Below, in pieces: positions 2,245 to 61,803 of a stretch of 64,000 nucleotides of DNA. The stretch lies in contig JAAEAF010002323.1 in NCBI GenBank assembly GCA_011037195.1, forward strand, positions 62,001 to 126,000, read 5' to 3'. The notes under the pieces were generated by a model. It was given only the letters and a program-made list of their open reading frames with translations, did no database searches and was not told the DNA's origin. This stretch comes from Triatoma infestans. Taxonomy: Eukaryota; Arthropoda; Insecta; Hemiptera; Reduviidae. How positions within the stretch are numbered: the first letter of the stretch is position 1; the number at the start of each line of letters is the position of its first letter. The translations under genes and the position numbers were made by a program.

Positions 2245-2329
2245 TATAATTTACTTTGTTGTTGTGGTTTGATTCCGCAGAGCTGGAAAGCATAAGAGAT
2301 ATTTCCCATGATAACCTGCTTCTTTTTGT

Positions 2330-2376
2330 GGTCATACACAGGTTTCGAGCGTTCGCCCATCATCAGGGCGACACTG
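2330..2376 (-). ncRNA. Degenerate hammerhead-like motif (R1 left arm)
   Basis: Read on the minus strand the core is CTGATGA, one extra T, stem II GGGCG-AA-CGCTC, then GAAA. The expected ACCGGTC cleavage segment is changed to ACCTGTG, so stem III and the cleavage nucleotide are damaged. Probably inactive. Confidence 0.5.
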
Positions 2377-2471
2377 CTTTTTGTCAAACAGTGTGATAAC
2401 ATAGATTTACACAGAGCAAATTTAGTTAATACACTCAGTGTATCTATGTTATCACACTGTATGATTAAAAG

Positions 2472-2510
2472 CATCCTGGTGATGGGCGAACGCCCGAAAC
2501 CGGTGCATGA
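2472..2510 (+). ncRNA. Degenerate hammerhead-like motif (R1 right arm)
   Basis: CTGGTGA replaces CTGANGA (the invariant A6 is G). Stem II GGGCG-AA-CGCCC, GAAA and palindromic ACCGGT are kept, but the base at the cleavage position is G, not A, C or T. Probably inactive. Confidence 0.5.
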
Positions 2511-2909
2511 CCACAAAAAAGAAGCAGTGAAAGGAGCGGGAAATATCTCTGATATAATTTACTTTATTAATCAGTTTATACGTAGGGTATTCAAAACTAT
2601 AATTTGTTGATTAATAAGTTATTGATTATAAAAAAAATATAAATGATACCATTTTTTACAGTAACATAGTATTTATTGACATGGTATGGTTGGAACGAAG
2701 CGCGCCCTTGCTTTAAAACGGAGGAATGTTGACTGTGTATCTGTGAGTGGAACATCAACAGAGCTACAAGCAGCCACATCAAATCCCATTTAGCTCTAAC
2801 CAGTGGTCCGTTTTTAATCGGAGAAAAAGGGAGTTAATGACCGGTTTTATGTTATCAGCTGGTGCCGGCACCAGAGTTGTCCAGAGTTCCTACTACACTA
2901 ATGGGATTG

Positions 2910-2910
<1 letters not shown>

Positions 2911-2946
<36 letters not shown>

Positions 2947-2966
2947 GTGTGTGTGTGTGTGTGTGT
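2911..2966. repeat. (TA)n followed by (GT)n microsatellite
   Basis: About 15 TA units run directly into about 11 GT units. The frame of 73 codons reported across it simply translates the repeat. Confidence 0.95.
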
Positions 2967-4305
2967 AACGTACAGTCATCCGCCTTGCAAAATGTGTGTA
3001 AACATTATTATTTGTTCTGGCCTCCCTTTTTGTTATAGACTAATTTTACTTTAAAAAAAACCTAAAAAATACTATATTTACTCTGTTTGTTTTTATTTCA
3101 CCGCTTGAACCACTTAGATTTTGTTTTTCTGTGGTTCTATAACTCAATTTCTTTTTGCATACATTTAGAAAAATCATTATTTAAATTTTTCTGCTTCGCT
3201 AAAGTTTATTTCTAGTTTTAACTGATAGCTAAAATCTTTTTCATACACACCGTAGGAAATATTTATAATTTAATCAGAATTTTGTGGTTCAAATTTTTCG
3301 GGCAATACGTATTAAAAAATGCATTGGAAAATACATTCATATAATTGGGCATTCTCAGCACGACAAAATAAAGTGTTTTAATTAACGCCAAAAAATATAT
3401 TATATACTTACCGATAATTAAAAGTTTCAAATAATTTTTATTGTCCGCACAGAAGAATTACTGTCTTTTAATTTACTATTATCAAATGTAATTCTTAGGT
3501 TTAGCTGCATTTTCTACCAGCAGTTTTTTGCATAATCACACAATAAATAATGTAGCGATCAGATAGATGCTGGTTTTTATTTACTATTTTGTTTTCATTC
3601 GGCGAAAAAAAACAAATACTCTAAAAATTTTTGTTTAAAAAAAAATAAAAGTAAATTAAAGTTTAAAAATAATTTTAATCAACAGAATTGATAATGTCTA
3701 TTAATTTAAATAAACAATTCATTGGCTAAGATAATAAAATTTATTAAAGTACTTAATTTATGTGGTACTTTATACGTCATAGCATGCAGTTCTTATTATT
3801 CTTGGCCTGTTTCGAATGGATTTTCATCCATTGTCAAAGCAAATTTATTAAGTTTTTGTAGAGAGTTCACTGCAACGCAGTGTTTCTGTTTCACTCGACA
3901 CTTGTTGGTTTGTTGATCAACATATAATTGCATGCTACGGCGGATAAAATCCCAGTTGTTATCCAGCATCTAGAAATAACTTTTACTACTTCGAGGCTGT
4001 TTTCCCAACAACTCTGAGTTAGGTGAATGCCCGATGGCAAGCTAACATAAGATATGGAGGTTAAAATTTACAAACATCGATTACTCCAATGGTATCTTTA
4101 TAAATAGATAATTTTTCCAAACTATGTCGATTTATTTCAATCCAAGTTCAATTTATTTCAATTTTAATAAATAATTTTTTTTTTGTTCTTTTTAGAAGAA
4201 ATATGTACATAGGTATGTACTACTTAATACCTATTTTAAACATTATTTTAGTAATGGATTCGAGCTACTTAAATTTGAGCTATAAAGTAAAAGTAAAGTA
4301 ATGCC
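2967..4305. other. AT-rich spacer
   Basis: No coding similarity is seen. The only structured motif is a weak hammerhead-like relic near 3.80-3.84 kb, listed separately. Confidence 0.5.
3803..3842 (-). ncRNA. Very degenerate hammerhead-like relic
   Basis: On the minus strand the order is TTTGACAA, a perfect hairpin TGGAT-GAAA-ATCCA, then TTCGAAAC. Layout and GAAAC box resemble the other ribozyme motifs in this window, but G8 and the 5' core bases are altered and no cleavage site can be assigned. Confidence 0.25.
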
Positions 4306-4309
4306 TATT

Positions 4310-4490
4310 TTCTTTCAGGCGGGCTTAACGTCCAACTACTAAATTAGGTGTCGTGGACGGAAGCGGAAGCACTTGCTTTACTATTAACATTTTTTAAACA
4401 AGTATAATGTTTAGCAGTTATACGCGGGTCTTGAACTGCGGTCCTCCCACACGTCCATGCTCACAACCACTACACCAACACCCACCCCTA
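4310..4490 (-). mobile_element. tRNA-derived SINE (SINE-3)
   Basis: Read on the minus strand it starts with a tRNA-like head: an A-box-like TGGTGTAGTGGTTGTGAGC and a B-box-like GCAGTTCAAGACCCG about 30 nt further on. These are the two internal RNA polymerase III promoter elements of tRNA-derived SINEs. The remainder (4310-4420) is tRNA-unrelated body. No clear target duplication was found. It is not a tRNA gene because no acceptor-stem partner or 3' half is present. Confidence 0.6.
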
Positions 4491-4794
4491 AATTTGAGCT
4501 ATATTTAGCTAGTCAAGCTCATAAAATATACTTAGTGATGAGGTGTATAAAAAAACAATACCGTTTTTCTAACTAAAGAATTTCCATGGACTTTAAAACC
4601 CACCCATATCGGATTTTTACAAGCACTATATTATATTTATGTTATTAACCTTTAGATTATGTAGAGTATTTCTATACATATTATGTTCCCTTCAAATATT
4701 CAATTCAAAGATGAACTTTTTAAGAAAAACCATGACTGTGTCTTACGATATATTATTACTATTACGTCAACTGGAAAAAAGTGGACAGCTGTTG

Positions 4795-5385
4795 AAGTAC
4801 ACGTGCTCTATGTGTAATGGAAGGGGAAGATGTCTTTGATCAGCTTAGTGCCCGGCATTTTTTACAAATTTTAAAAGTGGTGATACGGCTCTACAAAGAA
4901 AGACAGGCTCAGGGCGGCCATCATGATTGATTGGAATCTATGGGAAGCGTCGAGTCAATTCTAACCAGAAGTATGTGCACTTGCTACAGAACTGACAGTG
5001 TCTAAAAACATAGTTTGACCTCCAAGCTATGGGGAAGGTATAAAATATTTAGGATAGTACCGCATGAAATAACACCTCAACAAGCCGTCAGCAGAATGGA
5101 TACTTGCCAACTTGTCTTTAAAAAAACATGTGACATGCACTTCTATAAAAGAATAGTGACATGTGATGAGGAGCTAAATTTTGAGACAGGTGGTCAATGG
5201 TTGGATTGCGGTCAAACGGCATTTCCGACTGGCACAAGAGGGGAATTTGAGAAAAAGTTCTCATACTCCGATCTTTACTGCCAACAACAAGGTAGAATGT
5301 ACTCAGAAAATGGCCCATCACTATCCACTTTTGGTCAAACGCATACAGGTTTTGTTGCATTCACTCTATAGTTCTACTTAGCTCC
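4795..5385 (+). pseudogene. mariner-family transposase relic
   Basis: Mariner (IS630/Tc1-mariner) transposases cut and paste DNA at TA sites using a D,D34D active site. In several frames this stretch gives the usual mariner order: a helix-turn-helix tail read as FKSGDTALQRKTGSGRPS near 4868-4922, LQAMGKV plus a broken WVPHE-like motif near 5020-5070, then RMDTCQ and RIVTCDE near 5092-5175, where the D of TCDE would be the first catalytic aspartate. Frameshifts and stops separate the blocks. The second and third catalytic residues are not recognisable and the C-terminal half appears lost. I found no terminal inverted repeats. A dead fossil, not a gene. Confidence 0.7.
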
Positions 5386-5889: not shown

Positions 5890-5950
5890 ATTTATTTGTT
5901 ATGTTGTAAATTGGATTTTGAGGTTCGGTCATACAAAAGAACTCTTTTTA

Positions 5951-6001
5951 AATTTCTACCGACGTTTCGTCAAATTTATTGCCTTCTTCAGGATAAAAAT
6001 T
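5951..6001 (-). ncRNA. Type-I hammerhead ribozyme motif (P2 left arm)
   Basis: The minus strand gives stem I, CTGAAGA, an extra A, stem II GGCAA-TAAAT-TTGAC, GAAA, ACGTC, then the other stem I strand. Stem I pairs over about 10 bp with G-U pairs. One stem II base is changed (GAC against GCC in the partner arm). The cleavage site would follow ACGTC. Core identity is seen; activity is inferred. Confidence 0.75.
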
Positions 6002-6141
6002 GCCAATTAGAATTCCAGTAGTAATTAATCTAGTTTAACCTTTGACACACCATTAAACTTGAACAAGTGTTCTACCATCAACACTTGGTGATGGTATGTC
6101 ACAGGTTAAACTAGATTAATTACTACTGGAATTCTAACTGG

Positions 6142-6194
6142 AAATTTTTACCCTGAAGAAGGCAATAAATTTGCCGAAACGTCGGTAGAAATTT
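6142..6194 (+). ncRNA. Type-I hammerhead ribozyme motif, best preserved (P2 right arm)
   Basis: Stem I strands 6142-6152 and 6184-6194 pair over 11 bp (one G-U). Between them are CTGAAGA (6153-6159), one extra A, stem II GGCAA-TAAAT-TTGCC (5 perfect pairs), GAAA (6176-6179) and the two-pair palindromic stem III ACGT. Cleavage is expected after C6183. All invariant core bases known for hammerheads (C3, U4, G5, A6, G8, A9, G12, A13, A14) are present. The extra base before stem II occurs in every copy in this window, so it looks like a family trait. A stem III this short is known from Penelope-associated hammerheads, which are thought to work best as dimers. Confidence 0.85.
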
Positions 6195-6290
6195 AAAAAG
6201 AGTTCTTTTGTATGACCGAACCTCAAAATCAAATTTACAACATTGAATATAGCGGTCGTAACGAACACCAAATACATCAATTTATTTGTT

Positions 6291-6438
6291 GTGGTGGTTG
6301 GTTCCGCAGAGTGTGAAACTAAGTTACTCTCGAGTCTGTGTTGTCACACTGTCTGAAAAACGCATCCTGAAGATGGGCGACGCCCGAAACCGGTCGATGA
6401 CCACAAAATGAAGCGGGCTACCACGGAAAATGTCTCTG
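6291..6438 (+). mobile_element. Small retrozyme-like element, family R (copy R2)
   Basis: A 148-bp element bounded by perfect 15-bp direct repeats ATCAATTTATTTGTT (6276-6290 and 6439-6453). It starts with the family tail GTGGTGGTTGGTTCCGCAG and ends at TGTCTCTG, the same two boundaries as R1. It keeps one full hammerhead core on the plus strand and has lost most of the left arm. Confidence 0.8.
6363..6399 (+). ncRNA. Type-I hammerhead ribozyme motif (R2)
   Basis: CATC (6363-6366) pairs with GATG (6396-6399) as the inner stem I. CTGAAGA (6367-6373), an extra T, stem II GGGC-GAC-GCCC, GAAA (6386-6389) and the 3-pair palindromic stem III ACCGGT follow. Cleavage is expected after C6395. Every invariant core base is present. 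Confidence 0.75.
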
Positions 6439-6453
6439 ATCAATTTATTTGTT

Positions 6454-8987: not shown

Positions 8988-9610
8988 AGTAATGACATGG
9001 CAAGGTCATAGCAATGTCAAACCTTCACAACACATAACAAAGAAAGAATAATTTATAACTAGTGGCCTAGCCGGCTGCTGTCTTCAAGACAAGGCCGCAG
9101 CCAAACAAACAAAACCAAGGGTCAATACTTTACATCAAAGCAAGCACCGATAAGCTGGCCACTGACCTAAATCGCTGGTCACCGAACTAACCAAGGTCGC
9201 ACACTAGGACAGATGTCTTGGTGTGAGTGTTGCTAACACTAATATATAAACTTTGCCCCATTGGAAGAGGGGATGATTATACTTCAGTACGTCTTCAAGA
9301 TCATTATACGAGCAGCAGTTCCGCGTCCCTATACAGTTTTTATTTATACTTATTTCCTTAGTTGTGCATCTTAGTTCATTTATTTTAATCATTCTAAATT
9401 ATTAGTTATTTATCTCTCCTATTTATTTCTAAGTATTTCTTGTTAATAGTTACCATCTCACGTTTAAATTATTGTACAAATACAGTCTATTTTTATAAAT
9501 TCCATGTTAATAATTCGAGCACTAACTCCCAAAAATCTCTAAACTAACTTCCGCCCTCTTCAAGACATTTACTACATACCTCAGGAATCACAATAAACGA
9601 TTCCACTACA
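8988..9610 (+). mobile_element. Solo LTR, family A (A1)
   Basis: A copy of the long terminal repeat family that begins TGTAATGACATGG and ends CGATTCCATTACA; here the ends read AGTAATGACA and CCACTACA. No internal retrotransposon region follows. The flanks GACC and CGCC do not match well, so its target duplication has decayed, or the element inserted at the edge of the SINE that starts at 9611. A TATA-like sequence near 9241-9250 supports this orientation only weakly. Confidence 0.8.
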
Positions 9611-9877
9611 CGCCTCACGCATTGGTCTAGTGGCTACTACAATCGTCTTTGGTGCGAGAATTTAGGGTATTTTTTCCCGGTGAATGCAAAGACGATGATG
9701 AACCAGTATCGTGAGAAAAATTGGGAAGCTACATGAGTAGGGTACCAATGTAGTGAAGACCAGAACTAAACGGTGATAGGATCGGTGGCTCGTTCATTCA
9801 AATCACGTCCCCCCCACTCAAAATCATCGGGCAAGTCTTGGCCCCTTCTTGGGTTCGTGCGCCAAAGGTGTCTACTT
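9611..9877 (+). mobile_element. tRNA-derived SINE-1, copy a
   Basis: The head CCTCACGCATTGGTCTAGTGG is tRNA-like (A box) and is followed by a decayed B-box region. The rest aligns throughout with the better copy at 10382-10641, ending in CTTGGCCCCTTCTTGGG and GCGCCAAAGG. The A-rich tail is lost. LTR A1 touches its 5' edge exactly. Confidence 0.75.
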
Positions 9878-10381: not shown

Positions 10382-10641
10382 TTCTTTTTTTTTCTATGGC
10401 GCAACAGCCCATGAAGGGCCAAGGCTTGCAGACGGCGATTTGAATAGTGGGGCGTGTGGTAAGCACGCCGCAGTTCCCACGCCGTTAGTTCTGGCCTTTG
10501 GGTACCTAGGGTGCTACTAACTGTACTTCCTAAGTTTTATCACGATGCTGGGTCAACAACGACTTTGCCCTCACGGGAATCGAACCCTGAATTCTCGCAA
10601 GAAAGGCGAGTGCGCTAGCCACTAGACCAACGCGTGAGGAC
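10382..10641 (-). mobile_element. tRNA-derived SINE-1, copy b, with target duplication
   Basis: Flanked by perfect 14-bp direct repeats TATCAGAATCTACT (10368-10381 and 10642-10655). Read on the minus strand it starts CCTCACGCGTTGGTCTAGTGG (A box), has the B box GGGTTCGATTCCC, a tRNA-unrelated body, and ends in an A-rich tail (the T run at 10382-10394). The pol III boxes and target duplication mark it as a retroposed SINE, the best preserved of three copies here. Confidence 0.9.
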
Positions 10642-12181: not shown

Positions 12182-12857
12182 TGTAATGACATGGCAAAGT
12201 CATTGACATCGGCAAAGCCACAAACACCAAAGAAAGAATAATTTACAACTAGTGGCAATACCCAGCTGCTATCTTCACAAAGGATGGCAGTAATAAAAGA
12301 ACAATTTATAATCAGCGACCTAGTTGGCCGCCGGCTTCAAGACAGCCGCGGCCAAACAAACAACAAAGCCTTTTCATCAATACTGTACATCAAAAAGCAA
12401 GCACCGAAAAGGTTGACCACTGACCTAAATAAGGTCAGCAAACTATGAAGGTCGCACACTAGGACAAATGTCTTTGTGTGAGTGTGGCCAACACCAATGT
12501 ATAAACTCTATCTTATACAACGAGCGATTATTATATCATCTACGGCCAAACGAACACGTCTTTATACCCGAGCGGCAATTTACAGTTATATTCAAACTTA
12601 TCATTCTTTAGTAGTGCATCTTAGTTCAGTTATTTCAGTCATTCTAATTTATTAATAATTTATCTTCTATTTATTACTAAGTATTTTGCTAGTTATTAGT
12701 TACCATTTCTAACGTTCTTATTATTGTTAAAATACAGTTTATTTTTATAAAATCCGTTTAATTATTCGAGCACTAACTTCCAAAAACTCCAACTAACTTC
12801 CGCCCTCTTCAAGACATCTAGTACATCAGGAATCACACATCAAACGATTCCATTACA
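12182..12857 (+). mobile_element. Solo LTR, family A (A2)
   Basis: Starts TGTAATGACATGG, ends CGATTCCATTACA, and is flanked by a perfect 4-bp duplication TATG (12178-12181 and 12858-12861). A TATA-like TGTATAAACTC near 12498 may be its promoter. The 4-bp duplication and TG...CA ends fit a Ty3/gypsy-type retrotransposon; the internal region has been removed, presumably by LTR-LTR recombination. Confidence 0.9.
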
Positions 12858-23648: not shown

Positions 23649-24401
23649 TTACGTACGTTTGGGTATAAAGCTCTCTCCGTCTCCCTAAACTGGTCACGTG
23701 GTATATTGACCCTCATATCCCAACCTACTCCAGAACCCTCTTCCGCTAGTAGTAGCACTCCCTTCTGGTGATTGCCCAGCTCTCTGATAGTGTCCCCCTG
23801 GGGCCCCGTCCTCTCTCATTAACCGCCAGTCTCAGCTTTACTGTTCGCTTACCACACCAGCTTCCCTGAGTTAAAGCAGCAGTCGTCTCCTTTAACATCC
23901 TTTTCTACTACCTTTGGGAGTTGTTTCTTTGGCTACCAGTCATAGCTACCAAACCGTTCTCTTACCAAGTTTTCTTTGGAATAAGTGCTTTTATAGTGAA
24001 GATAAAATTTACCTATTTTTTTTAGACATTACCTGTATTTAACCATTCCAAAAATTATTATACTTTTCTTGGGTAAATATAATATTTTTTTTTTTATGGG
24101 TATTATACGTTTATTAATATATCCCAAAGCCCAATAAAGTACCATTTCCAATCCTATTGTTTTCGGTTCTGCCATTGACTTTCCGTTAAATTTCATTGAT
24201 TTTCCCAGAAATAACTCCAACGGTTTTCTTCAAACGTATTTAAGTTAAACATATTATGAACTACAACATTTATTTGTTATATTTCTTAAGGGAAATTCAT
24301 TTAAGACGGCTTTTATGTGAGGGGTATGTTCTCCTCTGAAATGCTAATTTAGTTTATTATTCGATTCTTTATCTGAATAATATTAAATAGAATTAAATAT
24401 G

Positions 24402-25226
24402 GTATTTAAATCGTCAGGCCTTAAAATTACAATGAGATGTTTGTACGGCAATGGACAGAAGCTTTTAAAAAAAAAAAAAAAAAAAATTTCTTTCTTGCTC
24501 AACGTTTCGGGTACCATTGGTGCCCTTCTTCAGGAGCTCTGTTAAAATTTATTGGAGGAAATACTTATTGTACAATTATAGTAGTTATGAAAAGTTCATA
24601 GATTTATAACAAAAAAAAAAAAAAGAAAGAAAAATTTAAATTAAAGAAATATTTCCAGAAAAAATTATAAACGAGAAGTGACAGTTAATTAAATAAAATG
24701 ATATTAACAATAAGATAAAATAAGACAGATAAAGATACCTTTAGGGTAAGAGAGGAGTGAACGATGAGAACGTTGAGACTGAAGTGAAGAGAGAGTATTT
24801 TTTTAAAAATTTAAAAAACTGTTAAACGATGGGAAGGATAAGAAAAATGTTTGTAGTGAGGTGCGGCAATTTCAAATTTGGAAGAACAAATTACTGGTGA
24901 GTATCTTTTTTTAGGGTTAGAAAAATATTGTTGTAAGTTGAAGTTATGATTTCTTTGTCTTTTTTAAAAATTGATAGAATTCGGATGAAGGTGAATTTGT
25001 AAGGATTCGGATAGAAGATGTTTTGAATGGTTGGGGTATGTGGTTATTGAAATCGATGGTATGATTGAAAGTCAGAACATGAATGGAGTGCTGTCAATTT
25101 TTTTGTTAATAATGTCTAGTTCGTGTTGTCAGAGTCTTTTTACGTAAAAAGACAAACGTAGACCAACAAAGCAATTTTTTTTTTCCTTTAAAAACTCCTC
25201 TGGCCATTGCCGTACAAACATCTCAT
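24402..25226. mobile_element. Penelope-like element with inverted ends and a hammerhead motif (P3)
   Basis: Bounded by perfect 14-bp direct repeats TAGAATTAAATATG (24388-24401 and 25227-25240). The inverted arms begin ATGAGATGTTTGTACGGCAA (from 24432) and end in its reverse complement (to 25226). As in P2, P4 and R, only one end has an extra tail, here 24402-24431 (30 nt). The 0.8-kb interior is AT-rich and non-coding. A hammerhead core lies just inside the left arm on the minus strand, followed by an A/T run. Confidence 0.75.
24497..24536 (-). ncRNA. Type-I hammerhead-like motif (P3)
   Basis: The minus strand reads GCTC (stem I), CTGAAGA, an extra A, stem II GGGCACC-AAT-GGTACCC with one C-A mismatch, GAAA, ACGT, T, then GAGC (stem I). 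All invariant core bases are present. The cleavage triplet is GUU rather than GUC, an allowed NUH triplet but usually slower. Confidence 0.7.
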
Positions 25227-25240
25227 TAGAATTAAATATG

Positions 25241-28063: not shown

Positions 28064-28253
28064 TTAAATACAATTAAAAACACCAGTCAGTGTGTAAATT
28101 GAATTTGCTCTGTGCAAGTCTGTGTCATCACACTGTCTGAAAAACGCATCCTGAAGATGGGCGAACGTCCGAAACCGGTCGATGACCATAAAATGAAGCA
28201 GGCTACCACAGAAAATGTCTCTGATGCTTTCCAGCTCTGCGAAACCAACCACC
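28064..28253 (+). mobile_element. Family R retrozyme-like element, 5'-truncated (R3)
   Basis: From the TTGCTCTGTGCAAGTCTGTG block through the hammerhead to the full family tail GCTTTCCAGCTCTGCG and ACCAACCACCACAAC. The opposite arm is missing. No clear target duplication was found, so the left boundary is approximate. Confidence 0.7.
28147..28184 (+). ncRNA. Type-I hammerhead ribozyme motif (R3)
   Basis: CATC, CTGAAGA (28151-28157), extra T, stem II GGGCG-AA-CGTCC (five pairs including one G-U), GAAA (28171-28174), ACCGGT palindromic stem III, expected cleavage after C28180, then GATG pairing with CATC. All invariant core bases are present. Confidence 0.75.
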
Positions 28254-34941: not shown

Positions 34942-34945
34942 ACAG

Positions 34946-35675
34946 TGTAGTGGAATCGTTTATTGTGATTCCTGAGGTATGTAGTAGATGTCTTGAAGAG
35001 GGCGGAAGTTAGTTTAGAGATTTTTGTAAGTTAGTGCTCGAATTATTAACACGGAATTTATAAAAATAGACTGTATTTCTACAATAAATTAAACGTAAAA
35101 AATGGTAACTATTAACAAGAAATACTTAGAAATAAATAGAAGATAAATAACTAATAATTTAGAATGATTAAGATAAATGAACTAAGATGCACAACTATAG
35201 GTAATAAGTATAAATAAAAACTGTATAGGGACGCGTAAACTGCTGCTCGTACTGAAGTGTAATCGTATATTCATATAATAATCTAATGATCCCCTCTTCC
35301 AATCTGGCGAAGTTTATATATTAGCGTTGGCCACACTCACACCAAGACATCTGAGTGTTGCCCACACTCACACCAAGACATCTGTCCTAGTGTGCAATCT
35401 TGAGCGACCTTGGTTAGTTTGGTGACCACCGATTTAGGTCAGTGGCCAGCCTTAGCGGTGCTTGCTTTGATGACAGCAGCTGGCTACCGATTTAGGTCAG
35501 TGGCCAGCCTTAGCGGTGCTTGCTTTGATGTAGGGGTATTTACCCTTGGTTTGTTTGTTTGCCCGCGGCCTTGTCTTGAAGTCAGGCAGCTGGCTAGGCC
35601 ACTAGTTGTAAATTATTCTTTCTTTGTTATTATTGTGAAGGTTTGACATTGCTATGACTTTGCCATGTCATTACA
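34946..35675 (-). mobile_element. Solo LTR, family A (A3)
   Basis: Reverse-oriented A-family LTR (TGTAGTGGAATCG to TGTCATTACA on the plus strand) with a perfect 4-bp duplication ACAG (34942-34945 and 35676-35679). It contains a private 58-bp tandem duplication (units at 35428 and 35486) and a 31-bp one near 35331-35384, which make it longer than A1 and A5. The 78-codon frame at 35410 is an artefact of these. Confidence 0.9.
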
Positions 35676-36209: not shown

Positions 36210-36213
36210 TGTG

Positions 36214-36945
36214 TGTAGTGGGAATCGTTTATTGTGATTCCTGTGGTATGTAGTAGATGTCTTGAAGAGGGCGGAAGTTAGTTTAGTGATTTTTGGAAGT
36301 TTAGTGCTCGAATTACTAATACTGAATTTATAAAATAGACTATATTTTTTACAATAATTAAGTGTGAAAAAATGGTAACTATTAAATGAAAATACTTAGA
36401 AATAAATAAGAGATAAACAACAATAATTAAAAATGATTAAAATAAATAAACTAAGATGCACTGCTATGAAAATAAGTTTAAGTAAAATCTGTATAGGGAC
36501 GCGGAACTGCTGCTCGTATAACGATGTGCTCGTATATGATAATCTAATGTCGTACTGGTCTATAATAATCTACTGACGTGCTCGTATATAATAATCTACT
36601 GACGTACTCGTGTATAATAATCCCCTTCAATGGGGCGAAGTTTATATTAGTGTTAGCAACACTCACACCAAGACATCTGTACTAGTGTGCGACCTTGTGC
36701 GACCTTGGTTAGTTCGGTGACCAATGATTTAGGTCAGTGGCCAGCTTTATTGGTGCTTGCTTTGATATAAAGTATTGACCCTTGTATTGAAAAGGGCTTT
36801 GTTGTTTGGCCGCGGCCTTGTCTTTGAAGACAGCGGCCGGCTGGGCCACTAGTTATAAATTATCCTTTATTCCGGCCATCCTTTGTAAAGATAGCAGCTG
36901 GCTGGAACCACTTTGACATTGCTATGACTTTGATGTGTCATTACA
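36214..36945 (-). mobile_element. Solo LTR, family A (A4)
   Basis: TGTAGTGGGAATCG to TGTCATTACA on the plus strand, perfect 4-bp duplication TGTG (36210-36213 and 36946-36949). Contains a short internal expansion of CGTACTCG/CTCGTATATAATAATC units near 36530-36620 not seen in A1. Confidence 0.9.
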
Positions 36946-36989
36946 TGTGCAATATGATCTTTTAGGTTTCTGCGGCCATTTTCATTAAA

Positions 36990-37150
36990 AAACACTCGCG
37001 TCAGTGGTTTGATAAAAACCTCATGTTCCCCCATGTTGCAATGAGACTCTTCAGGAACGTTTCACCTTGAAGAAGCTCATTGTAACTTGGGCGAAACGTC
37101 GGTTGTTATCAAACCACTGACGCGATCTCAACTCGCAAACTCAACTGTTA
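36990..37150. mobile_element. Palindromic Penelope-like relic, family P5 (copy a)
   Basis: The arms CGCGTCAGTGGTTTGAT (37007-37023) and ATCAAACCACTGACGCG (37108-37124) are inverted. Each continues inward into a decayed ribozyme half (ATGAGACTCTTCAGG and GAAGAAGCTCATTG). On the right a tail-like segment (CTCAACTCGCAAACTCAACTG) extends past the palindrome. No target duplication was found. Confidence 0.6.
37062..37110 (+). ncRNA. Degenerate hammerhead-like motif (P5a)
   Basis: CACC, TTGAAGA (C3 changed or a T inserted), stem II GCTCA...TGGGC, GAAA, ACGTC, then GGTTG. The GAAACGTC box is intact; the 5' core is not. Confidence 0.5.
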
Positions 37151-39614: not shown

Positions 39615-40252
39615 TGTAATGGAATCGTTTGATGTGATTCCTGATGTAGTAGATGTCTTGAAGAGGGCGGAAGTTAGTTGAGAGATTTTGGAAGTTAGTG
39701 AATCGAATTATTAATACGGATTAACAATAATTTTAACGAATAAATGGTAACTAATAACTAGCAAAATACTTAGGAATAAATAGAAGATAAATAAGTAATA
39801 AATTAGAATGATAAAATAAACGAACTAAGATGCACTACTAAAAGATAATAAGTTTAAATGAAACTGTGTATAGTCGCGTAAACTGCTGCTCGTGTATATG
39901 GACGTGCTCGTATCGTCGTGTAAGATAGATATAATGATCCTCTCGTTGTATATGATAGAGTTTATATATCGGTGTTGGCCACACTCACACCAAGACATCT
40001 GTCCTAGTGTGCGACCTTGTGCGACCTTCGTAGTTTGCTGACCTTATTTAGGTCAGTGGCCAACCTTATCGGTGCTTGCTTTGATGTAAAGTATTGAAAA
40101 GGGCTTTGTTGTTTGTTTGGCCGGCATTGTCTTGAAGACGGCGGCCCGCTAGGTCGCTGGTTATAAATTGCTCTTTTATTACTGCCATCCTTTGTTAAGA
40201 TAGCAGCTGGCTGGAACCACTTGACATTGTTATGACTTTCTTTGTCATTACA
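39615..40252 (-). mobile_element. Solo LTR, family A (A5)
   Basis: TGTAATGGAATCG to TTTGTCATTACA on the plus strand, perfect 4-bp duplication GTCC (39611-39614 and 40253-40256). Matches A2 best. The 90-codon frame at 40004-40276 lies in the LTR and runs past its end. Confidence 0.9.
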
Positions 40253-40256
40253 GTCC

Positions 40257-41209
40257 AGTATCCTTCCGAGCCTCACTTTCTGCGATCGGTGAACTTAAAG
40301 CTGGTTTTGATATTTGTGAAATAGAACACTAATCCTTTGAAAATTTATACCTCTCTTTAATTTCTAAGGTTGAGATATACTTTATTTCCTAATTATAACC
40401 TTACCACTATTATCTCAGGTTGACTTGGTTATACTGTGAGATATCATAGAGCCGCCATATTTAACACTATAAAGAGAAAGAATAGTACTTCTGTCTTAGT
40501 TTGTTGTTCTTTCATGTGCCATTTCCATAGACTATTCACCTAAATATTTCCTGTGGATGTAAGTAAATATTCACTATTATAGATGAAGACATCACTTTGT
40601 GTATTTTTGTGGTACAGTATGTGTGTGGAGTGTTCTAATTTTGTGAGTGAGTCAGTGCCCTAATTTAGCAAATGCTAGTTGGTATATAACACGGTTTACC
40701 AAAATAGTCCGAATGGAATAACATCCGTTAATTCCAAATTGATGATTAGGTCCCGATCCGCAGGGCTGGCCGTAGATTTTTCTCTTCTTACGAACCTCGG
40801 CAGCTCAATGCTCGATGATAAGCAATACTGTGCGACAGAACACTGTCCAGAGGCCAGCATGATCTGAAAAGGTTCTACGAGTGGCGGAGTACATAAATCT
40901 TTCAGATGCTGTGCATTATCTTCTCAGAAAAAAGGAAGCATTTCCCTACTTTTATAGGTACTATTTAGACAATTACACTTTCCCAGTCTTGAAATGAATT
41001 TATTTCTACAAATAGGAAACAAAGTTGATGATGGTGCGTGCTAACCTTGAGAACAGGAAACAGCGTTTTCACTCTCATTTTATTTATGTTTTAAATTTGA
41101 ATAATGATTTAAATTTTGAAAAAAGAATGGATAAAGTGATTTAATATTACCTATAACGAAATATATTTATTTCAATATAAATTTTTAAGAAACCAAGAAG
41201 AAGCGGAAA
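40257..41209. other. Spacer, no supported gene
   Basis: 40640-40920 has mixed base composition but no frame with a recognisable domain. Confidence 0.4.
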
Positions 41210-41214
41210 CACAC

Positions 41215-41345
41215 TTGAGTGTTTTCGGATTTGCTAAAAACCGACGTTTCGCAATGCATATTGCACTGAGCTCTTCAGGATCGTTACATCTTGAAAGCCA
41301 AAGAGACAAACCACTGACGTGGTCTCAAACCGGAAACTCAAACCG
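41215..41345. mobile_element. Penelope-like relic, family P5 (copy b)
   Basis: Left arm with a hammerhead core on the minus strand; right arm reduced to ACAAACCACTGACGTGG plus the tail-like TCTCAAACCGGAAACTCAAA, also seen after P5a. Boundaries approximate. Confidence 0.55.
41236..41284 (-). ncRNA. Type-I hammerhead-like motif (P5b)
   Basis: Minus strand: GATC, CTGAAGA, stem II with inner TGCA-ATA-TGCA and outer GC...GC pairs, GAAA, ACGTC, GGTT. Core bases are complete. Stem I is short (about 4 pairs, with G-U) and stem II is irregular. Confidence 0.55.
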
Positions 41346-46890: not shown

Positions 46891-47362
46891 TCTAAGAGGA
46901 AATATCTCTTTTATCTTTTTATAAATATTGTGTGTAAAATTTTTTATATCTCAGAGTATATTTCAATTTTTTTCGTTTTTGTTTCCACTTTTCTATGCTT
47001 CTTTTTAGGAAATAAGTATTTATACACACACACTAAAGTATCTAAATAAAATTAGAAATGTTCCATTAGGCTAATGTATGTAGGTTGCCAGAATAATTAA
47101 TGTACATCACGTACCCTAAATACTTAGAAGTTAATAGAACAACTTAATAGTAAAAAGAAGACTATCATGTCTTTTCTTACATAATTCTTGTGAAAATAAA
47201 ACATAAAAAAAATAAACCAACTTGATTGAATTTACGATAACAAGGTTCACGCTTCTTCGACGACTTTATACTAAACTTAAAATCAAATCAACTTCTTTCT
47301 TTTTAAACTTTAGCTTCAAAGCTCCATTTTTATATTTTACAGAATATATTTTAATATGACTG

Positions 47363-47844
47363 TTTCTGGGTTTTGTATAGGCTGTGTTTAGATTTTATGA
47401 TTTTTAGAAATTTTTGAACCTTTAAACAGCCTTATCTTCAAATTATATTTATTATAATTTACAAACCATTTATTACATCAAATTTGTACTCCCAACGTTT
47501 CGACACTATACACGTGTCCTCCTCGGGGGTTTTTTTTCAGATTCTATGGTTATAAATTATTGTTATATACTTGTTAATTTTTCTTGATTTCAAGAGAGTC
47601 CCATGTGATTTAAATTAGTTATTCCTTTTATATTTTAAATTGTAACATTACGTTACTAGTCCGTATTTATTATGTATTTAATAGCTCATGAATTTATGAT
47701 TACTTATATTTTATGTGTTAGGTTTTTAATTTATATTTTATCGCCTTTCCACGTGGTTTTTGTATTGTTGAACATGTACCAAACTAATAATAAATATAAT
47801 TTGAAGATAAGGCTGTTTAAAGGTTCAAAAATTTGTAAAAACCA
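47363..47844. mobile_element. Penelope-like element with inverted ends and hammerhead (P4)
   Basis: Bounded by perfect 13-bp direct repeats TTTAATATGACTG (47350-47362 and 47845-47857). Perfect 44-nt inverted arms (47411-47454 and 47788-47831) extend outward imperfectly to about 47394 and 47844. Only the left side has an extra tail (47363-47393, 31 nt). The interior holds one hammerhead-like core and no coding sequence; short frames here read through the arms. Confidence 0.8.
47489..47529 (-). ncRNA. Variant hammerhead-like motif (P4)
   Basis: Minus strand: CCC, CCGAGGA (U4 changed to C), stem II GACAC...GTGTC (5 perfect pairs), GAAA, ACGTT, GGGAG pairing with the upstream C run. The U4 change probably weakens or abolishes cleavage. 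Confidence 0.5.
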
Positions 47845-47857
47845 TTTAATATGACTG

Positions 47858-54292: not shown

Positions 54293-54299
54293 GGGGATT

Positions 54300-55699: not shown

Positions 55700-55942
55700 A
55701 AAAAAAAAATCTGGTGTGAAACACTCACACGACTTTCTCTTACTGCGAAATGGCAAATTTGCTTCACACTTACAATTTTAAATCCGTCGGTATTTTTATA
55801 TAGAAAATTGCAAAAAAAACTGACAAAACTATTCAATAAAGTGGCACTTGCGGTCATCTGATTTTCTTCAAACTCGGGATTTCGACAACATATTTAATTT
55901 TCATCAGAGACATTTTCCGTGATAGCCTGTTTCATTTTGTGG

Positions 55943-55981
55943 TCATCGACCGCTTTTGGGCGTTCGCCCATCATCAGGATG
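55943..55981 (-). ncRNA. Degenerate hammerhead-like motif (R4 left)
   Basis: CTGATGA, extra T and a perfect stem II GGGCG-AA-CGCCC, but the GAAA box reads AAAA (G12 lost) and stem III is broken. Confidence 0.5.
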
Positions 55982-56120
55982 TATTTGTTGAACAGTGTGA
56001 TAACATAGAGTTGCACAGAGTAAATGCAGTTGATACACTACATTCTAAAGGTCTTTTCAGTCTAAAGATAACTGGTCCAGTAAGGTTACCGAGAGCAAAC
56101 TTAGATAATCTTATAAATAT

Positions 56121-56544
56121 TGTAACGCAGCCACTGATGCCATCTAGGAGAGAAAGCAGGTACCCCAAGTTCTCCTAGTCTGGATCCCTATCTAGGAATT
56201 TCGCGCTGGCGGTCGAGCTCTAGCGCTTGTTAATTTATTAGAAAATTGCGAAGATCTGCCCCTTCCCGCCGGTATAACTATATACCAAGTCCAGCTAGGG
56301 AGTTTCTAGTCTACAACTCTGTTCATCATACGTTTGTGGAAAGTGTATTAAAAATTGACAAAGTGAACTTTTTTTTGGTTTTAACACTGTGAATTAATCT
56401 TATTATTAAGTGTTGTATGTAATAATGTTATTGTGTAAACAATAAATTGGGGGTTTTTTTTTTTATTGAAGTTTAGAGTATTTTACTCTAAACGAACCAC
56501 TTAAAACTAGTTGCAGTAGCTAGTTTAGAAAGAAAAACGTTACA
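56121..56544. mobile_element. Solo LTR, family B, inside R4
   Basis: Starts TGTAACGCAG and ends AAACGTTACA, with a perfect 4-bp duplication ATAT (56117-56120 and 56545-56548). A related R copy at 58085-58118 (minus strand) has the unoccupied sequence AAATATTTTATATCC, which proves the insertion point. The termini echo those of LTR-A. An AATAAA lies near 56440. Confidence 0.9.
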
Positions 56545-56699
56545 ATATTTTATATCCAGATCAGAAGTAATTTTACTTTCAGTTTAAAAAATTGTAGTAG
56601 CAATAATGTTGGATGCACTAAAAAAAAGACCTTTAAAATCCAGTGTATCAACTGTATTTGCTCTGTGCAAGTTTATGTTATTACACTGTTCAACAAAAA

Positions 56700-56744
56700 C
56701 ATCTTGATGATGGGCGAACGCCCGTAACCGGTCGATGACCACAA
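56700..56744 (+). ncRNA. Degenerate hammerhead-like motif (R4 right)
   Basis: TTGATGA replaces CTGANGA and GTAA replaces GAAA; stem II and ACCGGTC remain. Confidence 0.45.
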
Positions 56745-56865
56745 AATGAAGCAGCCTATCACGGAAAACGTCTCTGATGCTTTCCAGCTCTGCGGAACCA
56801 ACCACCGCAATAACATATTTAATTCTTATTAATATTATTTAAATGATAGAATTGTATAATAAACT

Positions 56866-57556: not shown

Positions 57557-58003
57557 CTCCTTGTACATGTAGTTAATATTTAAAATTCCAAGAAAATCGT
57601 TTGAGCCGTTTTTAAAAAAATTGCAAAATATTGACAATAACTATTCAGTAAAGAGTGGCACTTTCGGTTGATGGAATTTGCCCGAAAACTTCGTGTCTAA
57701 TGCGGTGGTAGTACCTGAACGGAATACCAAGTTTGTAGCTTCCTGCATCTTTCGTTTTTAAAATATTCTTTTCACACACATCCACACACACACACTATTT
57801 CTAATGACCCTTTTTTTGGACTTAGGGGACCTCAAAATTGTACTTCCGGTGAAAACTCAATTTCAAAAATCGCAGTACTTCCTCTAACAGCACTTTGATA
57901 AACTAATATGTTTATTTCTTATAAAGACAAGCAATTAAATTAAATTATATTTTTATGTTTATTGCTACCTTTATATGTAGTCTGTATGATTTTGAAAGAG
58001 TTT

Positions 58004-58745
58004 TTATTTTTTTTAAATTTTTTAGTGCATCCAACATTATTGCTACTATAATTTTTGAATTGAAAGTAAAATTTCCTGCTACTCTGGATATAAAATATTT
58101 ATAAGATTATATAAGTTTGCTCTCGGTAAGTTTACTGGACCAGTTATCTTTAGAAAAACCCCCTCCTAAAGTTTCATGCATTAAATTTTTATTTAGTTTA
58201 CCCATTCCATTTAAACTTTATTGTTACTAGTACACTTTCCAGGTACTTTATAAATTTAATTTTTATTTATAACTACTTAAACACTCAGAGAGGCGAGCTG
58301 GAGACCTCATTCAAATTTCCCTCGTTTTCCCCTGTAATGGGAGGGGCGGGATTAATATTATACTAATAAGAAGTTGTGTTATTTTTTTTTTTGGAACGCT
58401 CACATTTTTTTATGTTAGTCTATCTCTTATTCTTGCATTAGAAATACACAATTTTTCTAATAAACTTCTAAATAAATTTAGAAGTCCAAGTAAAATTAGT
58501 GTAGAAAACAAAATGTAGTATTTTCTTTTATTCATTTATTTAATTCTAAAGTTTAAAGTTTACAAATTATCATGAAACTCATTTTTTTTTTTTTTAAGTA
58601 TTGTTGATTATTGAATTGAATGTGTAAACTGATTTTGTTATGTGCAAGTCTGTGTTTATCAAGATATTCTAATTATAGGCAAACGCCCTAAACGGGCGAT
58701 GGCCATAAAATCAAGGCTATTAACAAAAAAATTATCTCGGATTCT
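58004..58745. mobile_element. Diverged family-R copy (R5)
   Basis: 58004-58180 matches, in reverse, the centre of R4 (AACATTATTGCTAC, the unoccupied LTR-B site and CTGGACCAGTTATC). 58620-58745 matches the R right arm with a badly decayed ribozyme (GGCAAACGCCCTAAACGGGC). The middle is AT-rich DNA. Boundaries are uncertain. Confidence 0.55.
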
Positions 58746-58856
58746 TACTTTAAACTTAATTTAAATATAGTAGAACAATATTGTATTTAAATAAAACTAT
58801 ATATACCTAAATATATATATATTTGTTGGGGAGTACGCAGGAAACGCTTTGCTGCT

Positions 58857-59171
58857 TGTAATGGCAAGAGAGAGAAAAAACAGGCTTGGCAAGAGAGAGA
58901 AAACAGGCCCTCTCTGGTACTCTCTGACTTAAGCAGGCTAGAGTGGGATAACCTGTATATAAGCCAGTGAGAATCAATCTATATATATCTATCTATCAGA
59001 TTCAACCATACATCGCAACGTGTCATATCTCTACTCTCACCGTTTATTCTATAAAATCATTACAACTCCAGTGCAGTGAGTGCAAACTTATAGCTAAATT
59101 ATATATAACAGTGTCTTCATATCTCGTTTAATTAATCAAACCTAATTTCTCTCCTGATCAACTCCATTATA
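58857..59171 (+). mobile_element. Solo LTR, family C (C2)
   Basis: TGTAATGG to CCATTATA with a perfect 5-bp duplication CTGCT (58852-58856 and 59172-59176). Very similar to C1. TATA-type core TGTATATAAGCCAGTGAG near 58955. A tandem GGCAAGAGAGAGAAA duplication lies near its start. A 5-bp duplication suits Copia- or Pao/BEL-type elements; the type is not determinable from the LTR. Confidence 0.9.
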
Positions 59172-59503
59172 CTGCTTTTATAATTCAAGCTGCTTCCTTA
59201 AAAAAAAAAAAAGGTTTCCTTTTGTTTTATTAGTATAAACCCTTAAAGGACAATTTTTCTTCAGTTATGAAATATTTGTTAAATATTTAATTGTTTTATA
59301 ATTACATATGAATAACGAGTGGTGGGGGATATACTTTCTGATATTAAGCATACGTATTACTTTATTCTGATGACATGGTCTTTGTCAGTCATAGGCCAAT
59401 ATTTGTGTCTACAGTATAAAGTTAAATCCATTCCAGAACATCGCTGTAAAACGTTTCTTTTTGTGGCAAACTGTTTGGATTTAAATTTTATCCCTTGTTT
59501 GGT

Positions 59504-59740
59504 CTAATGGCTAGCGCTTTTGCCTTGATGAGAGAATTTAAGGTTCGGTTTTCCCTGACAATATTTACCAAGCATAATAGGTGAAAGTGGGGAGCTACAG
59601 TTAGGAGCGAATTTTGGTAGCTAAAGTCTGAACTAAATGTCGAAAAACCGTGGCACTCTTACACGCCTCATTTTGAAAGCCCTAACCCTTCATGAGCTGT
59701 TGCTACATGAAGCCGTTTTCGAGAAAATTAAAAAAAAAAA
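59504..59740 (+). mobile_element. tRNA-derived SINE-1, copy c
   Basis: GGTCTAATGGCTAGCGC (A box), AGGTTCGGTTTTCCC (B box) and the SINE-1 body through CCCTTCATGAGCTGTTGC, ending in an A run (59728-59740). The first few bases of the head are missing and no target duplication is evident. The 65-codon frame here is a translation of the SINE. Confidence 0.75.
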
Positions 59741-60880
59741 ACACGAAAATCCAGCTGCAGTAATAAATAAGTATAATATCAACTCGTTAGCAATACATGT
59801 TGAAAGTAAAATTATACTTCTGTATTCATTTTAAAGTTTAAAAATGTTGTTAAACCTTATTCATCATAATGACTTCTGAAAATATTATAAAAATATTAAT
59901 ATTAATATTTAAAAAAAATTGTCGTAAAAAAAAAAACCAAGCAACTAATGGAATCCTTCAATAAATAAAAAGAATACATATCATTTATTTAATTAATATT
60001 TACAAGAATCTGAATATTTCACAAAATGAAACAGCTTTTTTATTAAGTTAATAAGATTTTTAATTGAATTGACTTTATTAATTCATAAAATAAAATAAGT
60101 AAAGTGAAGAAATGTTATTTTATTGATTTCTCTCGTGAAACAATTTGAATCTATGTAACTTATAATGAATCTTAGAAACACAGTTATATGTGCATTTAGT
60201 ATCTGAATCAGAAACTGAATATTTTACACCAGTCAGAATGAGAAGCCGTTTTCTCTTCTAAGGTTATCAGGTTTCCCCACTTTACCTCTTCTAACCCATA
60301 AACTACCATGTAAATCAAGATCACCACAAGTCGGACTTTTGTTGGTTATCAATAGTTGTGAATATTTCAAGGAAGATTTCCTTACCTAAGTCCACATAGA
60401 GAAGTTACCACCCTCACAAAATTTATATATACTTTGTGTAAATATACGATACAGACTGAATGTGCTAGAAGTCATGAGCTTGTAAAGTCTACTCTTTTTT
60501 TTAAAAACTTAACTATTGTTTTATAACTAAACAACAAAGCAACAACTTTCGAAAAAAATAATGTTTCTTAAAGCTTTCTTTTTATCTTTGTGTAAATAAC
60601 AAGACAATTTTGTCAGTACAGCTTAAAGAGACTTAGGCAAGCATTAATTTAATTAATTCCAAATATCAATGGAACGAAACTTGACTTTAGCAAAACATAT
60701 CTCGCTATGTGACTAATTTGGACCATTTTTATTTTATTTTATTTATTTTTTTATTTTAAGGAAAACGACAGTTGGAATTCGATATAAACTTGACAGATTA
60801 ATTTAAAAAGTTAGATTCCAATCACAATCTTTTATTTCAAATAATTTTTCTAATATTGATTTTATTTTTTATTTATTTAA
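59741..60880. other. AT-rich spacer
   Basis: Nothing recognisable. Confidence 0.5.
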
Positions 60881-61000
60881 GGCGCATCAACATCTATGGT
60901 CTTTAGCCTTCCGGAACCTTCTCAGTGCACTGCCGGCCGCAGTGTTCGGCCGGGCAGTGTTCTCTCATTAAAAACAACACTGTCCATCACAGCTTCGGCC
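60881..61000 (-). mobile_element. SINE-2, partial copy d
   Basis: Has the AAGGCGCATCAACATCTATG 3' end and part of the body, but breaks off before the B box. Confidence 0.6.
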
Positions 61001-61387
61001 GTCCACACACTAAATATTGAATTTAATGTATAAAAGAATTGAACAAAAATTATTCAGCATTCAAACGTAAACCAGCGAGAACTACTTATTAGTCCATTTC
61101 CTTTATTATTTATTTATTTATTTATTAAATCTTTACATTCCTTTCCATCCTTAAAAAAGTACCGAAGCCAATTCAATCACTGCCATCAAACTGTTAAGAT
61201 AAATTAATATTTTATATTATTTTCATTTTTCGCCAGACCCACTTTTCCACACACCTACTGTTCCAAAATACGCCTCATAATATTTGCTCAAATCGGCATC
61301 TTTTAAGCATCCTTGACCATCGGCCTTTTTGAGAATTTATGGCCTCATAGATTTTACTCTATCATTTGATAAATGAATGTTAACATT

Positions 61388-61591
61388 AGAGACATTTTCC
61401 ATGGTAGCCTGCTTCATTTTGTGGTCATCGCCGTTTTCGTGCGTTTGCCATCTTCAGGATGAGTTTTCAGACAGTGTGACTACACAGACTTGCACAAAGC
61501 AAATTCAGTCTACACACTGACAAAATGAAGCAGGCTACCACGGAAAATGTCTCTGATGCTTTCCAGTTCTGCAGAGCCAACCACCACAACA
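61388..61591. mobile_element. Small family-R element (R6)
   Basis: A 204-bp element with 12-bp direct repeats AATGTTAACATT (61376-61387 and 61592-61603). The left arm begins AGAGACATTTTCC and the right arm ends with the tail GCTTTCCAGTTCTGCAGAGC and CCACCACAAC. The left arm keeps a hammerhead-like core on the minus strand; the right arm has lost the ribozyme half and retains only ATGAAGCAGGCTACC onward. Confidence 0.8.
61418..61462 (-). ncRNA. Degenerate hammerhead-like motif (R6)
   Basis: CATC, CTGAAGA, extra T, GGC...CGCAC (imperfect stem II), GAAA, then a damaged stem III (ACGGC). 5' core bases intact. Confidence 0.45.
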
Positions 61592-61803
61592 AATGTTAAC
61601 ATTGTTTGAAATGTTGTTTATATGGATGTGATATTTCTGAACATTTGTTTGAATAGAAAATAATTTTGAAAAATAAAGAATAGAATGTCATTCGTATCTA
61701 TTAGCATTTATTATTCCGTAGAAATTGAAATTTGTAAAGAAAATGGCCAACTGAGACTCGAAGTCATGGAAATATTTGTTAGAGTTTTATATATATATTT
61801 TTT

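What the first reader, a model, noticed from the sequence alone, without database searches (positions are those of the whole stretch)
2245..61603. Several small element families share one plan: ribozyme in inverted arms, one-sided ~30-36-nt tail, 11-15-bp target duplication
Seven insertions (R1 2258-2552, P2 5901-6279, R2 6291-6438, P3 24402-25226, P4 47363-47844, R4 55900-56811, R6 61388-61591) can be bounded by direct repeats of 11-15 bp. They belong to at least four families unrelated in primary sequence, yet each has a tail of about 30-36 nt on only one side, and a hammerhead-like core. Seen directly: repeats, arms, tails, cores. Known: Penelope-like elements have a short tail beside the terminal repeat, variable target duplications and hammerheads with tiny stem III. 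Inference: these are non-autonomous Penelope derivatives, some retrozyme-like, and the inverted layout is maintained rather than accidental. A 64-kb window with so many distinct families is notable.
Basis: partly seen in the sequence, partly recalled or inferred. Interest (0 to 1): 0.9.

Follow-up and report, generated by a model that had tools for sequence, protein, structure and literature searches.

The report
Penelope copies made by paired priming
Seven small repeats in this stretch of genome each have two oppositely oriented ends of which only one carries an extra end piece, they are likely copies of Penelope-type jumping genes (one still holds a decayed piece of the Penelope enzyme gene), and this layout is predicted to arise anew at each insertion because the enzyme would start copying its RNA from both cut DNA strands at two neighbouring places.

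Summary
The layout is real: 7 of 7 insertions have exact 11-15-bp flanking repeats (chance 1.5e-4 each for >=11 bp) and a tail on exactly one of two oppositely oriented arms. Four strict hammerhead cores occur in the window, none in 10 shuffles. The Penelope assignment is direct for P3: its interior matches a GIY-YIG endonuclease C-terminus, and copies elsewhere in this genome (L063/L086, L083) carry RT and GIY-YIG sequence with the same arms and tail. A second, coding family (PLE-A) shows the same plan. R, P2 and P4 are assigned by plan only; no coding partner was found. 'Maintained' inverted layout is not supported: in 26 R pairs the inner ends are copy-specific (4 of 325 locus pairs agree at both ends, with different centres), and in 4 of 7 window elements one arm is too short for a ribozyme. 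New here is a counted rule: in searches blind to the tail, 15 of 15 pairs have one tailed and one tail-less arm (PLE-A 9/9, R 6/6). With the published in vitro result that a Penelope enzyme extends both strands and uses two adjacent RNA start sites, this points to twin-primed insertion. Known kind of element; the integration rule is the interest.

The parts
2245..2565 (.). R1 with its 13-bp target duplication (2245-2257, 2553-2565); tail arm 2258-2439 on -, tail 2258-2294 (37 nt); tail-less arm about 2436-2552 on +
5890..6290 (.). P2 with 11-bp duplication (5890-5900, 6280-6290); tail-less arm from 5901 on -, tail arm to 6279 on +, tail 6244-6279 (36 nt); arms 95.4% identical over 153 columns
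6142..6194 (+). P2 hammerhead with 11-bp stem I, 5-bp stem II and minimal stem III
   Evidence: core at 6153; fold, z -3.66
6276..6453 (.). R2, inserted at the right end of P2; 15-bp duplication (6276-6290, 6439-6453); tail arm only 6291-6311 on -, tail-less arm to 6438 on + with hammerhead core at 6367
   Evidence: as L087
24388..25240 (.). P3 with 14-bp duplication (24388-24401, 25227-25240); long tail arm on - (tail 24402-24431, 30 nt; hammerhead core at 24533-), short tail-less arm 25154-25226 on +
24947..25173 (-). decayed C-terminal part of a Penelope GIY-YIG endonuclease frame inside P3
   Evidence: tblastn of the L063 endonuclease piece, E = 1e-15 (24979-25173) and 4e-6 (24947-25087); 85.6% DNA identity over 770 nt to L083
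27995..28259 (+). R3, single tail-bearing R arm with strict hammerhead core at 28151; no duplication found
47350..47857 (.). P4 with 13-bp duplication (47350-47362, 47845-47857); long tail arm on - (tail 47363-47397, 35 nt; one-mismatch hammerhead core at 47526-), short tail-less arm 47787-47844 on +
55887..56824 (.). R4 with 13-bp duplication (55887-55899, 56812-56824); tail-less arm 55900-56057 on -, tail arm 56624-56811 on +, tail 56780-56811 (32 nt); interior holds a later LTR-like insert
58605..58744 (+). R5, decayed single tail-less R arm
61376..61603 (.). R6 with 12-bp duplication (61376-61387, 61592-61603); tail-less arm 61388-61520 on -, short tail arm 61520-61591 on +, tail 61555-61591 (37 nt)

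Best explanation
The seven insertions are likely copies of several Penelope-like retrotransposon families (P3 carries the decayed end of a GIY-YIG endonuclease frame), and each consists of two oppositely oriented arms of which one alone ends in a tail, a layout predicted to arise at insertion when both 3' ends of a staggered target cut prime reverse transcription at two neighbouring start sites on the element RNA. Steps: (1) the element's RT-endonuclease would cut both strands with a stagger of about 10-16 nt, leaving 3' overhangs that become the target duplication (inferred). (2) One 3' end starts copying at the inner site (tail-less arm), the other about 30-37 nt further 3' at the outer site (tail arm), one site per strand (the one-tail rule is shown, its cause inferred). 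(3) Both cDNAs run toward the RNA's 5' end, through the ribozyme, and stop at the RNA end or earlier (variable inner ends shown; an RNA start at an initiator-like TCAGT inferred from clustered ends in R). (4) The two cDNAs are joined back to back (inferred). A long arm carries RT/endonuclease sequence, as in L063; two short arms give small elements like most of this window. The inverted arms are thus a product of integration, not a maintained ribozyme architecture.
For: One tail per pair: 7 of 7 in the window; tail-blind searches: PLE-A 9 of 9 (PLE-A unpaired arms 9 with tail, 10 without), R 6 of 6 pairs among 8 loci (one of them window R2); tail-containing queries, which favour one tail: R 22 of 24, P3 14 of 17 (P3 set includes the window copy), P4 8 of 8 same-contig pairs read from the coordinates. 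Among pairs with a duplication >=10 bp: 29 of 30. Tail-less ends cluster: R 141-150 of the query (151 in L002), PLE-A 439-449, P3 115-125 (133 in one L082 arm), P4 145-159. Inner ends of 69 R arms scatter; of 325 comparisons between 26 R pairs, 4 agree within 6 nt at both ends and these have different centres (0.56-0.71 identity). 18 of 69 R arm 5' ends lie within 11 nt, 7 of them at one base, the A of TCAGTGTG-like sequence. P3: copies with RT and GIY-YIG share arms and tail. PLE-A: RVT_1 E 6.3e-7 and GIY-YIG E 9e-6 in one 590-aa frame. Published: a Penelope enzyme from Anolis cleaves and extends both strands, starts at two adjacent internal sites, and the tail equals the stretch between them (PMC11167929, abstract and main text read).
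Against: No RT or GIY-YIG copy was found for R, P2 or P4; among 30 R loci (1.5-kb flanks) there was one weak hit (L008, E 4e-4) and none with the P3-type pieces. Exceptions to the one-tail rule: R L008 (two tails) and L002 (none), P3 L069 and L079 (two tails) and one L082 pair (none); only L079 of these has a duplication >=10 bp, and that is AT-palindromic. Ten of 24 R pairs, 9 of 17 P3 pairs and 1 of 9 PLE-A pairs lack a duplication >=10 bp. 5 of 26 R pairs have inner ends equal within 4 nt, and some R loci align with each other across much of the element at 74-80%, as copied palindromes would. Mapped inner ends are minimum extents, because the reference copy L010 diverges upstream. The published work saw no difference in start site between strands and so does not itself predict one site per strand. 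Own-arm similarity is modest: 0.943 within against 0.926-0.927 between, own arm best match in 9 of 16. The joining step is unobserved.
Confidence: 0.75

Rival explanations
1. Self-priming (snap-back): one strand is copied first, the cDNA or an antisense template folds back and primes on itself, giving an inverted repeat. This was proposed for inverted Penelope copies in a rotifer.
For: Palindromic joints occur, for example at the centre of R1 (about 2430-2440); PMC3846280 (passages read) argues for it from palindromes at inverted junctions. 5 of 26 R pairs have equal inner ends.
Against: It does not predict a second, fixed, tail-less outer end in every family, nor arms of unrelated length, nor mates of 21-35 nt beside the target (L003, L015, L026). 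A fold-back copy of the whole first arm would carry the tail twice.
Confidence: 0.12
2. Non-autonomous, retrozyme-like families that spread as whole palindromes, the inverted ribozyme arms being kept by selection.
For: High copy number of R (6008 first-look candidates, 40 scored); ribozyme cores present; no R coding copy seen; some R loci align across much of the element.
Against: Inner junctions differ from copy to copy; in 4 of 7 window elements only one arm reaches the ribozyme; inverted order gives no second sense ribozyme for monomer release.
Confidence: 0.08
3. Fold-back or MITE-like DNA transposons with inverted ends.
For: Inverted arms and target duplications.
Against: Ends are unequal (tail on one side), duplications vary from 10 to 16 bp, and P3 copies hold RT/GIY-YIG sequence.
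Confidence: 0.03

Closest known systems
Penelope-like elements with inverted pseudo-LTRs (Adineta vaga Pen2a and others, PMC3846280, passages read)
   Same: Inverted pLTRs, short target duplications (8, 9 and 10 bp in the passages), a 31-bp tail optionally at one of the inverted pLTRs, ORF start inside pLTR and tail, captured unrelated sequence between solo pLTRs.
   Different: Here six of the seven copies lack any recognised frame; duplications are 11-15 bp in the window and 10-16 bp among genome pairs counted; the one-tail rule is counted; the proposed origin is dual priming and not self-priming.
Poseidon PAc of Anolis (PMC11167929, abstract and main text read)
   Same: Tail between two RT start sites in an AC-rich stretch; both target strands cut and extended; hammerhead near the ORF start; AT-rich targets.
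   Different: In vitro system; inverted genomic products are not discussed in the text read; no difference in start site between strands was reported.
Minimal type I hammerheads dispersed in metazoan genomes (Cervera and de la Pena 2014, not held; cited through PMC7761336, passages read)
   Same: Core with minimal stem III, thousands of dispersed non-coding copies, some in Penelope pLTRs.
   Different: Here a route by which dispersed copies may arise is proposed.
LINE-1 twin priming (PMC2837659, abstract in the search listing only)
   Same: Inverted, truncated copies inside one target duplication.
   Different: In L1 a variant of the usual reaction; here two neighbouring start sites, seen in most pairs counted.
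Metazoan and plant retrozymes (PMC7229834 and PMC7761336, passages read)
   Same: Short repeats with hammerheads; Penelope enzymes suggested as helpers for the animal ones.
   Different: Retrozymes give circular RNA and the plant ones carry ribozymes in direct repeats; here the order is inverted.

Membership tests
Penelope-like elements | RT and GIY-YIG endonuclease in one element (P3, PLE-A) | tested here: met
   P3: L063/L086, L083 and decayed endonuclease in the window copy; PLE-A by Pfam.
Penelope-like elements | RT and GIY-YIG partner for R, P2, P4 | tested here: inconclusive
Penelope-like elements | pLTR arms, inverted or direct | tested here: met
Penelope-like elements | Tail of about 30-40 nt at one end | tested here: met
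   30-37 nt in six window elements, 21 nt in R2; 35 nt in PLE-A.
Penelope-like elements | Variable-length target duplication | tested here: met
   11-15 bp in the window; 10-16 bp in the 30 of 50 pairs that have one of 10 bp or more.
Penelope-like elements | Minimal hammerhead in the pLTR | tested here: met
   Pattern scan against shuffles, P2 fold, PLE-A motif; against: no Rfam match, R2 and R3 folds no better than shuffles. Cleavage not testable here.
Penelope-like elements | RT placed in the Penelope clade by a tree | not tested
   No tree built; 132 relatives at E<=1e-10, the listed ones with an organism name being from insects.
Retrozymes | Ribozymes in direct order releasing a monomer | tested here: not met
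   Arms inverted; second ribozyme antisense or missing.
Retrozymes | Circular RNA | not testable with these tools
   No RNA data.
DNA transposon / MITE | Equal terminal inverted repeats and fixed-size duplication | tested here: not met
   Unequal ends, varying duplications.

The most novel reading that the evidence does not exclude
Penelope integration is obligatory twin-primed reverse transcription on a single RNA: the RNA carries two landing sites about 35 nt apart, one for each strand of the cut target, so every new copy is born as an inverted pair of cDNAs with one tail, and the thousands of scattered minimal hammerheads in animal genomes are the stubs of this reaction. Two R copies whose tail arm stops at or just before the start of the other cDNA (R2, L093) are what a collision of two reverse transcriptases on one RNA would leave.
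Probability: 0.4. Interest if true: 0.75.

Novelty: new member of a known kind. Interest (0 to 1): 0.52.

Why it matters
How Penelope-like elements integrate is unsettled, and the papers read explain their inverted ends and one-sided tails only in part. The counted rule (one tailed and one tail-less arm per insertion) makes genomic copies records of two priming events, gives a direct prediction for the in vitro system that exists, and offers a plain origin for dispersed minimal hammerheads. It also shows that short ribozyme-bearing palindromes need not be independent non-autonomous families.

Tried and rejected
Rfam: no match at gathering score and no hammerhead match at E<=10; the sub-threshold microRNA-precursor hits at 2336-2507 reflect the R1 palindrome. 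Maintained palindrome: judged unlikely on inner junctions. A shared motif in tail-encoded peptides (P2, PLE-A, R looked alike by eye): a loose motif was found in only 3 of 65 long relatives, so not claimed. R arms ending always at the presumed RNA 5' end: rejected, 41 of 69 run further upstream. A coding partner for R in 30 R loci: none convincing; the eight loci were not tested for it. Pfam on 10 open frames of the window: nothing above cut-off.

Limits: R and P3 loci are the best-scoring 30 and 25 of 6008 and 2082 first-look candidates, and the tail-blind R set the best 8 of 902, so young copies are over-represented. P4 pairs were read from table coordinates without sequence. P2 copies outside the window were seen only in passing in L017, L037, L073 and L075. 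The tail-length and end positions from BLAST are good to a few bases. Prior art was looked for, open-licence papers only; Cervera 2014, Craig 2021 and Lunse 2017 were not held.

One search was an incomplete submission of mine, re-read my notes.
Full report
What was checked. All seven insertions have exact direct repeats at the given boundaries: R1 13, P2 11, R2 15, P3 14, P4 13, R4 13, R6 12 bp; random placements of the same lengths reach 11 bp with frequency 0.00015. R2 sits at the right end of P2 and its duplication includes P2's right target copy, so R2 is the later insertion.

Anatomy. Written in the sense of the ribozyme, an arm reads: upstream part, hammerhead, pLTR end, outer end. There are two kinds of outer end, 30-37 nt apart: a tail-less one and a tailed one. 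Each of the seven elements has one of each. In the R family four of five tail-less window arms end at or a few bases after CTCT (the fifth, R5, is decayed), and the five tailed arms end in an AC-rich stretch (CCACAACAAC, CCACCAC, CCACCACAACT, CCACCGCAAT, CCACCACAACA). R3, R4 and R6 read an open frame from an ATG after the ribozyme through the tail, and so does P2, as reported for a Penelope pLTR whose tail lengthens the N-terminus (PMC3846280, passages); P3 and P4 show no such frame. The shorter arm is 21 nt in R2, about 72 in R6, 73 in P3 and 58 in P4, too short to reach the ribozyme.

Ribozymes. A pattern of core, stem II, minimal stem III and stem I finds 4 sites without mismatch in the window and none in 10 dinucleotide shuffles; with one core mismatch 7 against 1 in all 10 shuffles. 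The P2 right arm folds into the expected shape (z -3.66); the R2 and R3 stretches fold no better than shuffles (z -0.7 and -0.3). No Rfam hammerhead model matches. Minimal type I hammerheads are described for Penelope elements (PMC7761336, PMC7229834, passages).

Penelope identity. GIY-YIG (PF01541) has 38 matches over its cut-off in this genome among 150 scored candidates; 30 loci were taken. 28 of the 30 show the 3' end of one family, here called PLE-A. Its copy L054 holds a 590-aa open frame, open at the locus edge, with RVT_1 (E 6.3e-7) and GIY-YIG (E 9e-6); 132 relatives at E<=1e-10 are in the protein collection, and of the 120 listed those with an organism name are from insects. Downstream of the frame PLE-A has a pLTR with a minimal hammerhead, and its 3' ends fall into two classes 35 nt apart. 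For P3 the link is direct: of 25 loci found with the P3 arm, seven carry pieces of a Penelope frame. L063 with the adjoining L086 shows a tailed inverted P3 arm, RT and GIY-YIG pieces in broken frames, a tail-less P3 arm, and, read by eye, a repeat of about 13 bp on both sides with a tail some 10 nt longer than in the window. L083 shows RT, GIY-YIG, then P3 arm and tail on one strand. The window's own P3 matches the L063 endonuclease piece (24979-25173, E 1e-15) and aligns with L083 at 85.6% over 770 nt. For R, P2 and P4 no coding copy was found; their assignment rests on the shared plan.

The one-tail rule. Genome pairs were counted. Searches blind to the tail: PLE-A, 9 of 9 pairs with one tailed and one tail-less arm (unpaired arms 9 to 10, so independent choice would give about one half); R with a query ending before the tail, 6 of 6 pairs among 8 loci, one of the six being window R2. 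Searches with the tail in the query, which favour one tail: R 22 of 24 (1 double, 1 none), P3 14 of 17 (2 double, 1 none). P4, from the coordinates: in 8 of 8 same-contig pairs one arm reaches query position 175-183 and the other ends at 145-159. Of the 30 pairs (of 50) with a duplication of 10 bp or more, 29 obey the rule; such a duplication arises in 18 of 1000 random trials (8/480, 6/340, 4/180).

The layout is made anew. The 5' ends of R arms were mapped on one longer R copy, L010; because copies diverge upstream, the mapped ends are minimum extents. They scatter from -311 to +154 and mostly differ between the arms of one element, for example (tail-less, tailed) 109/-2 in L003, 71/-185 in L014, -248/-86 in L025, -160/-32 in L030, -22/-311 in L009; in 5 of 26 pairs they agree within 4 nt. 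A palindrome copied as a unit would share its centre between copies: 4 of 325 comparisons agree at both ends within 6 nt, and those four have centres only 56-71% alike. Against this, some R loci align with each other across much of the element at 74-80%. 18 of 69 arm ends lie between -2 and +8, 7 at the A of a TCAGTGTG-like sequence; this is read as the RNA's 5' end, an inference. In R2 and L093 the tailed arm is little more than the tail and stops at or just before the start of the other arm.

Mechanism. A purified Penelope enzyme from Anolis cuts and extends both target strands, and its tail is the stretch between two RT start sites (PMC11167929, main text read). Joining this with the counts above, the best reading is that both 3' ends of a staggered cut prime on the RNA, one at each start site, run toward the RNA 5' end and are joined. 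Duplications at both sides with cDNA attached to each follow if the cut leaves 3' overhangs; this is inferred (that GIY-YIG homing enzymes leave short 3' overhangs is recalled). If one cDNA runs into an upstream unit, the copy carries RT and endonuclease sequence; if both are short, the result is a small palindrome. Self-priming, proposed earlier (PMC3846280), explains palindromes but not the two fixed outer ends.

Novelty. Inverted pLTRs, one-sided tails, target duplications and hammerheads are all in print for Penelope elements. The counted rule and its reading as twin priming did not appear in the passages read or in the listings; key papers of the field were not held, so this is not a claim of priority.

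Noticed in passing
window 56121-56544: LTR-like insert inside R4 (begins TGTAACG, ends CGTTACA) that splits a sequence intact at 58018-58154; the same start is seen in a flank of L053.
   Followed up: partly
window 36996-37125: Short imperfect palindrome with a one-mismatch hammerhead core at 37067+; pieces related to it at 41230-41341, 63163-63214 and in L030: perhaps a fifth family.
   Followed up: partly
window 3741-3960: Possible further element: strong stem-loop next to GAAAC with outer inverted GCATGC (by eye); a 74% relative lies in L080.
   Followed up: partly
window 8989-9611, 12182-12857, 34945-35675, 36213-36955, 39615-40261: Five copies of a 600-740-bp dispersed repeat in both orientations, about 73-87% identical; further matches in L011, L017, L070.
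   Followed up: no
window 9613-9867 and 10394-10639: Inverted pair of repeats with a tRNA-like box by eye (SINE-type), not of the Penelope plan.
   Followed up: no
L041 and L059: Another minimal-hammerhead repeat near PLE-A copies, on both strands in L041.
   Followed up: no
L049 and L058: Same 3' flank beside a PLE-A arm on two contigs: one insertion present twice, perhaps haplotypes in the assembly.
   Followed up: no
L003, L021: Partial second copy of the R 5' end at the joint of the two arms, as template jumping at the RNA end would leave.
   Followed up: no
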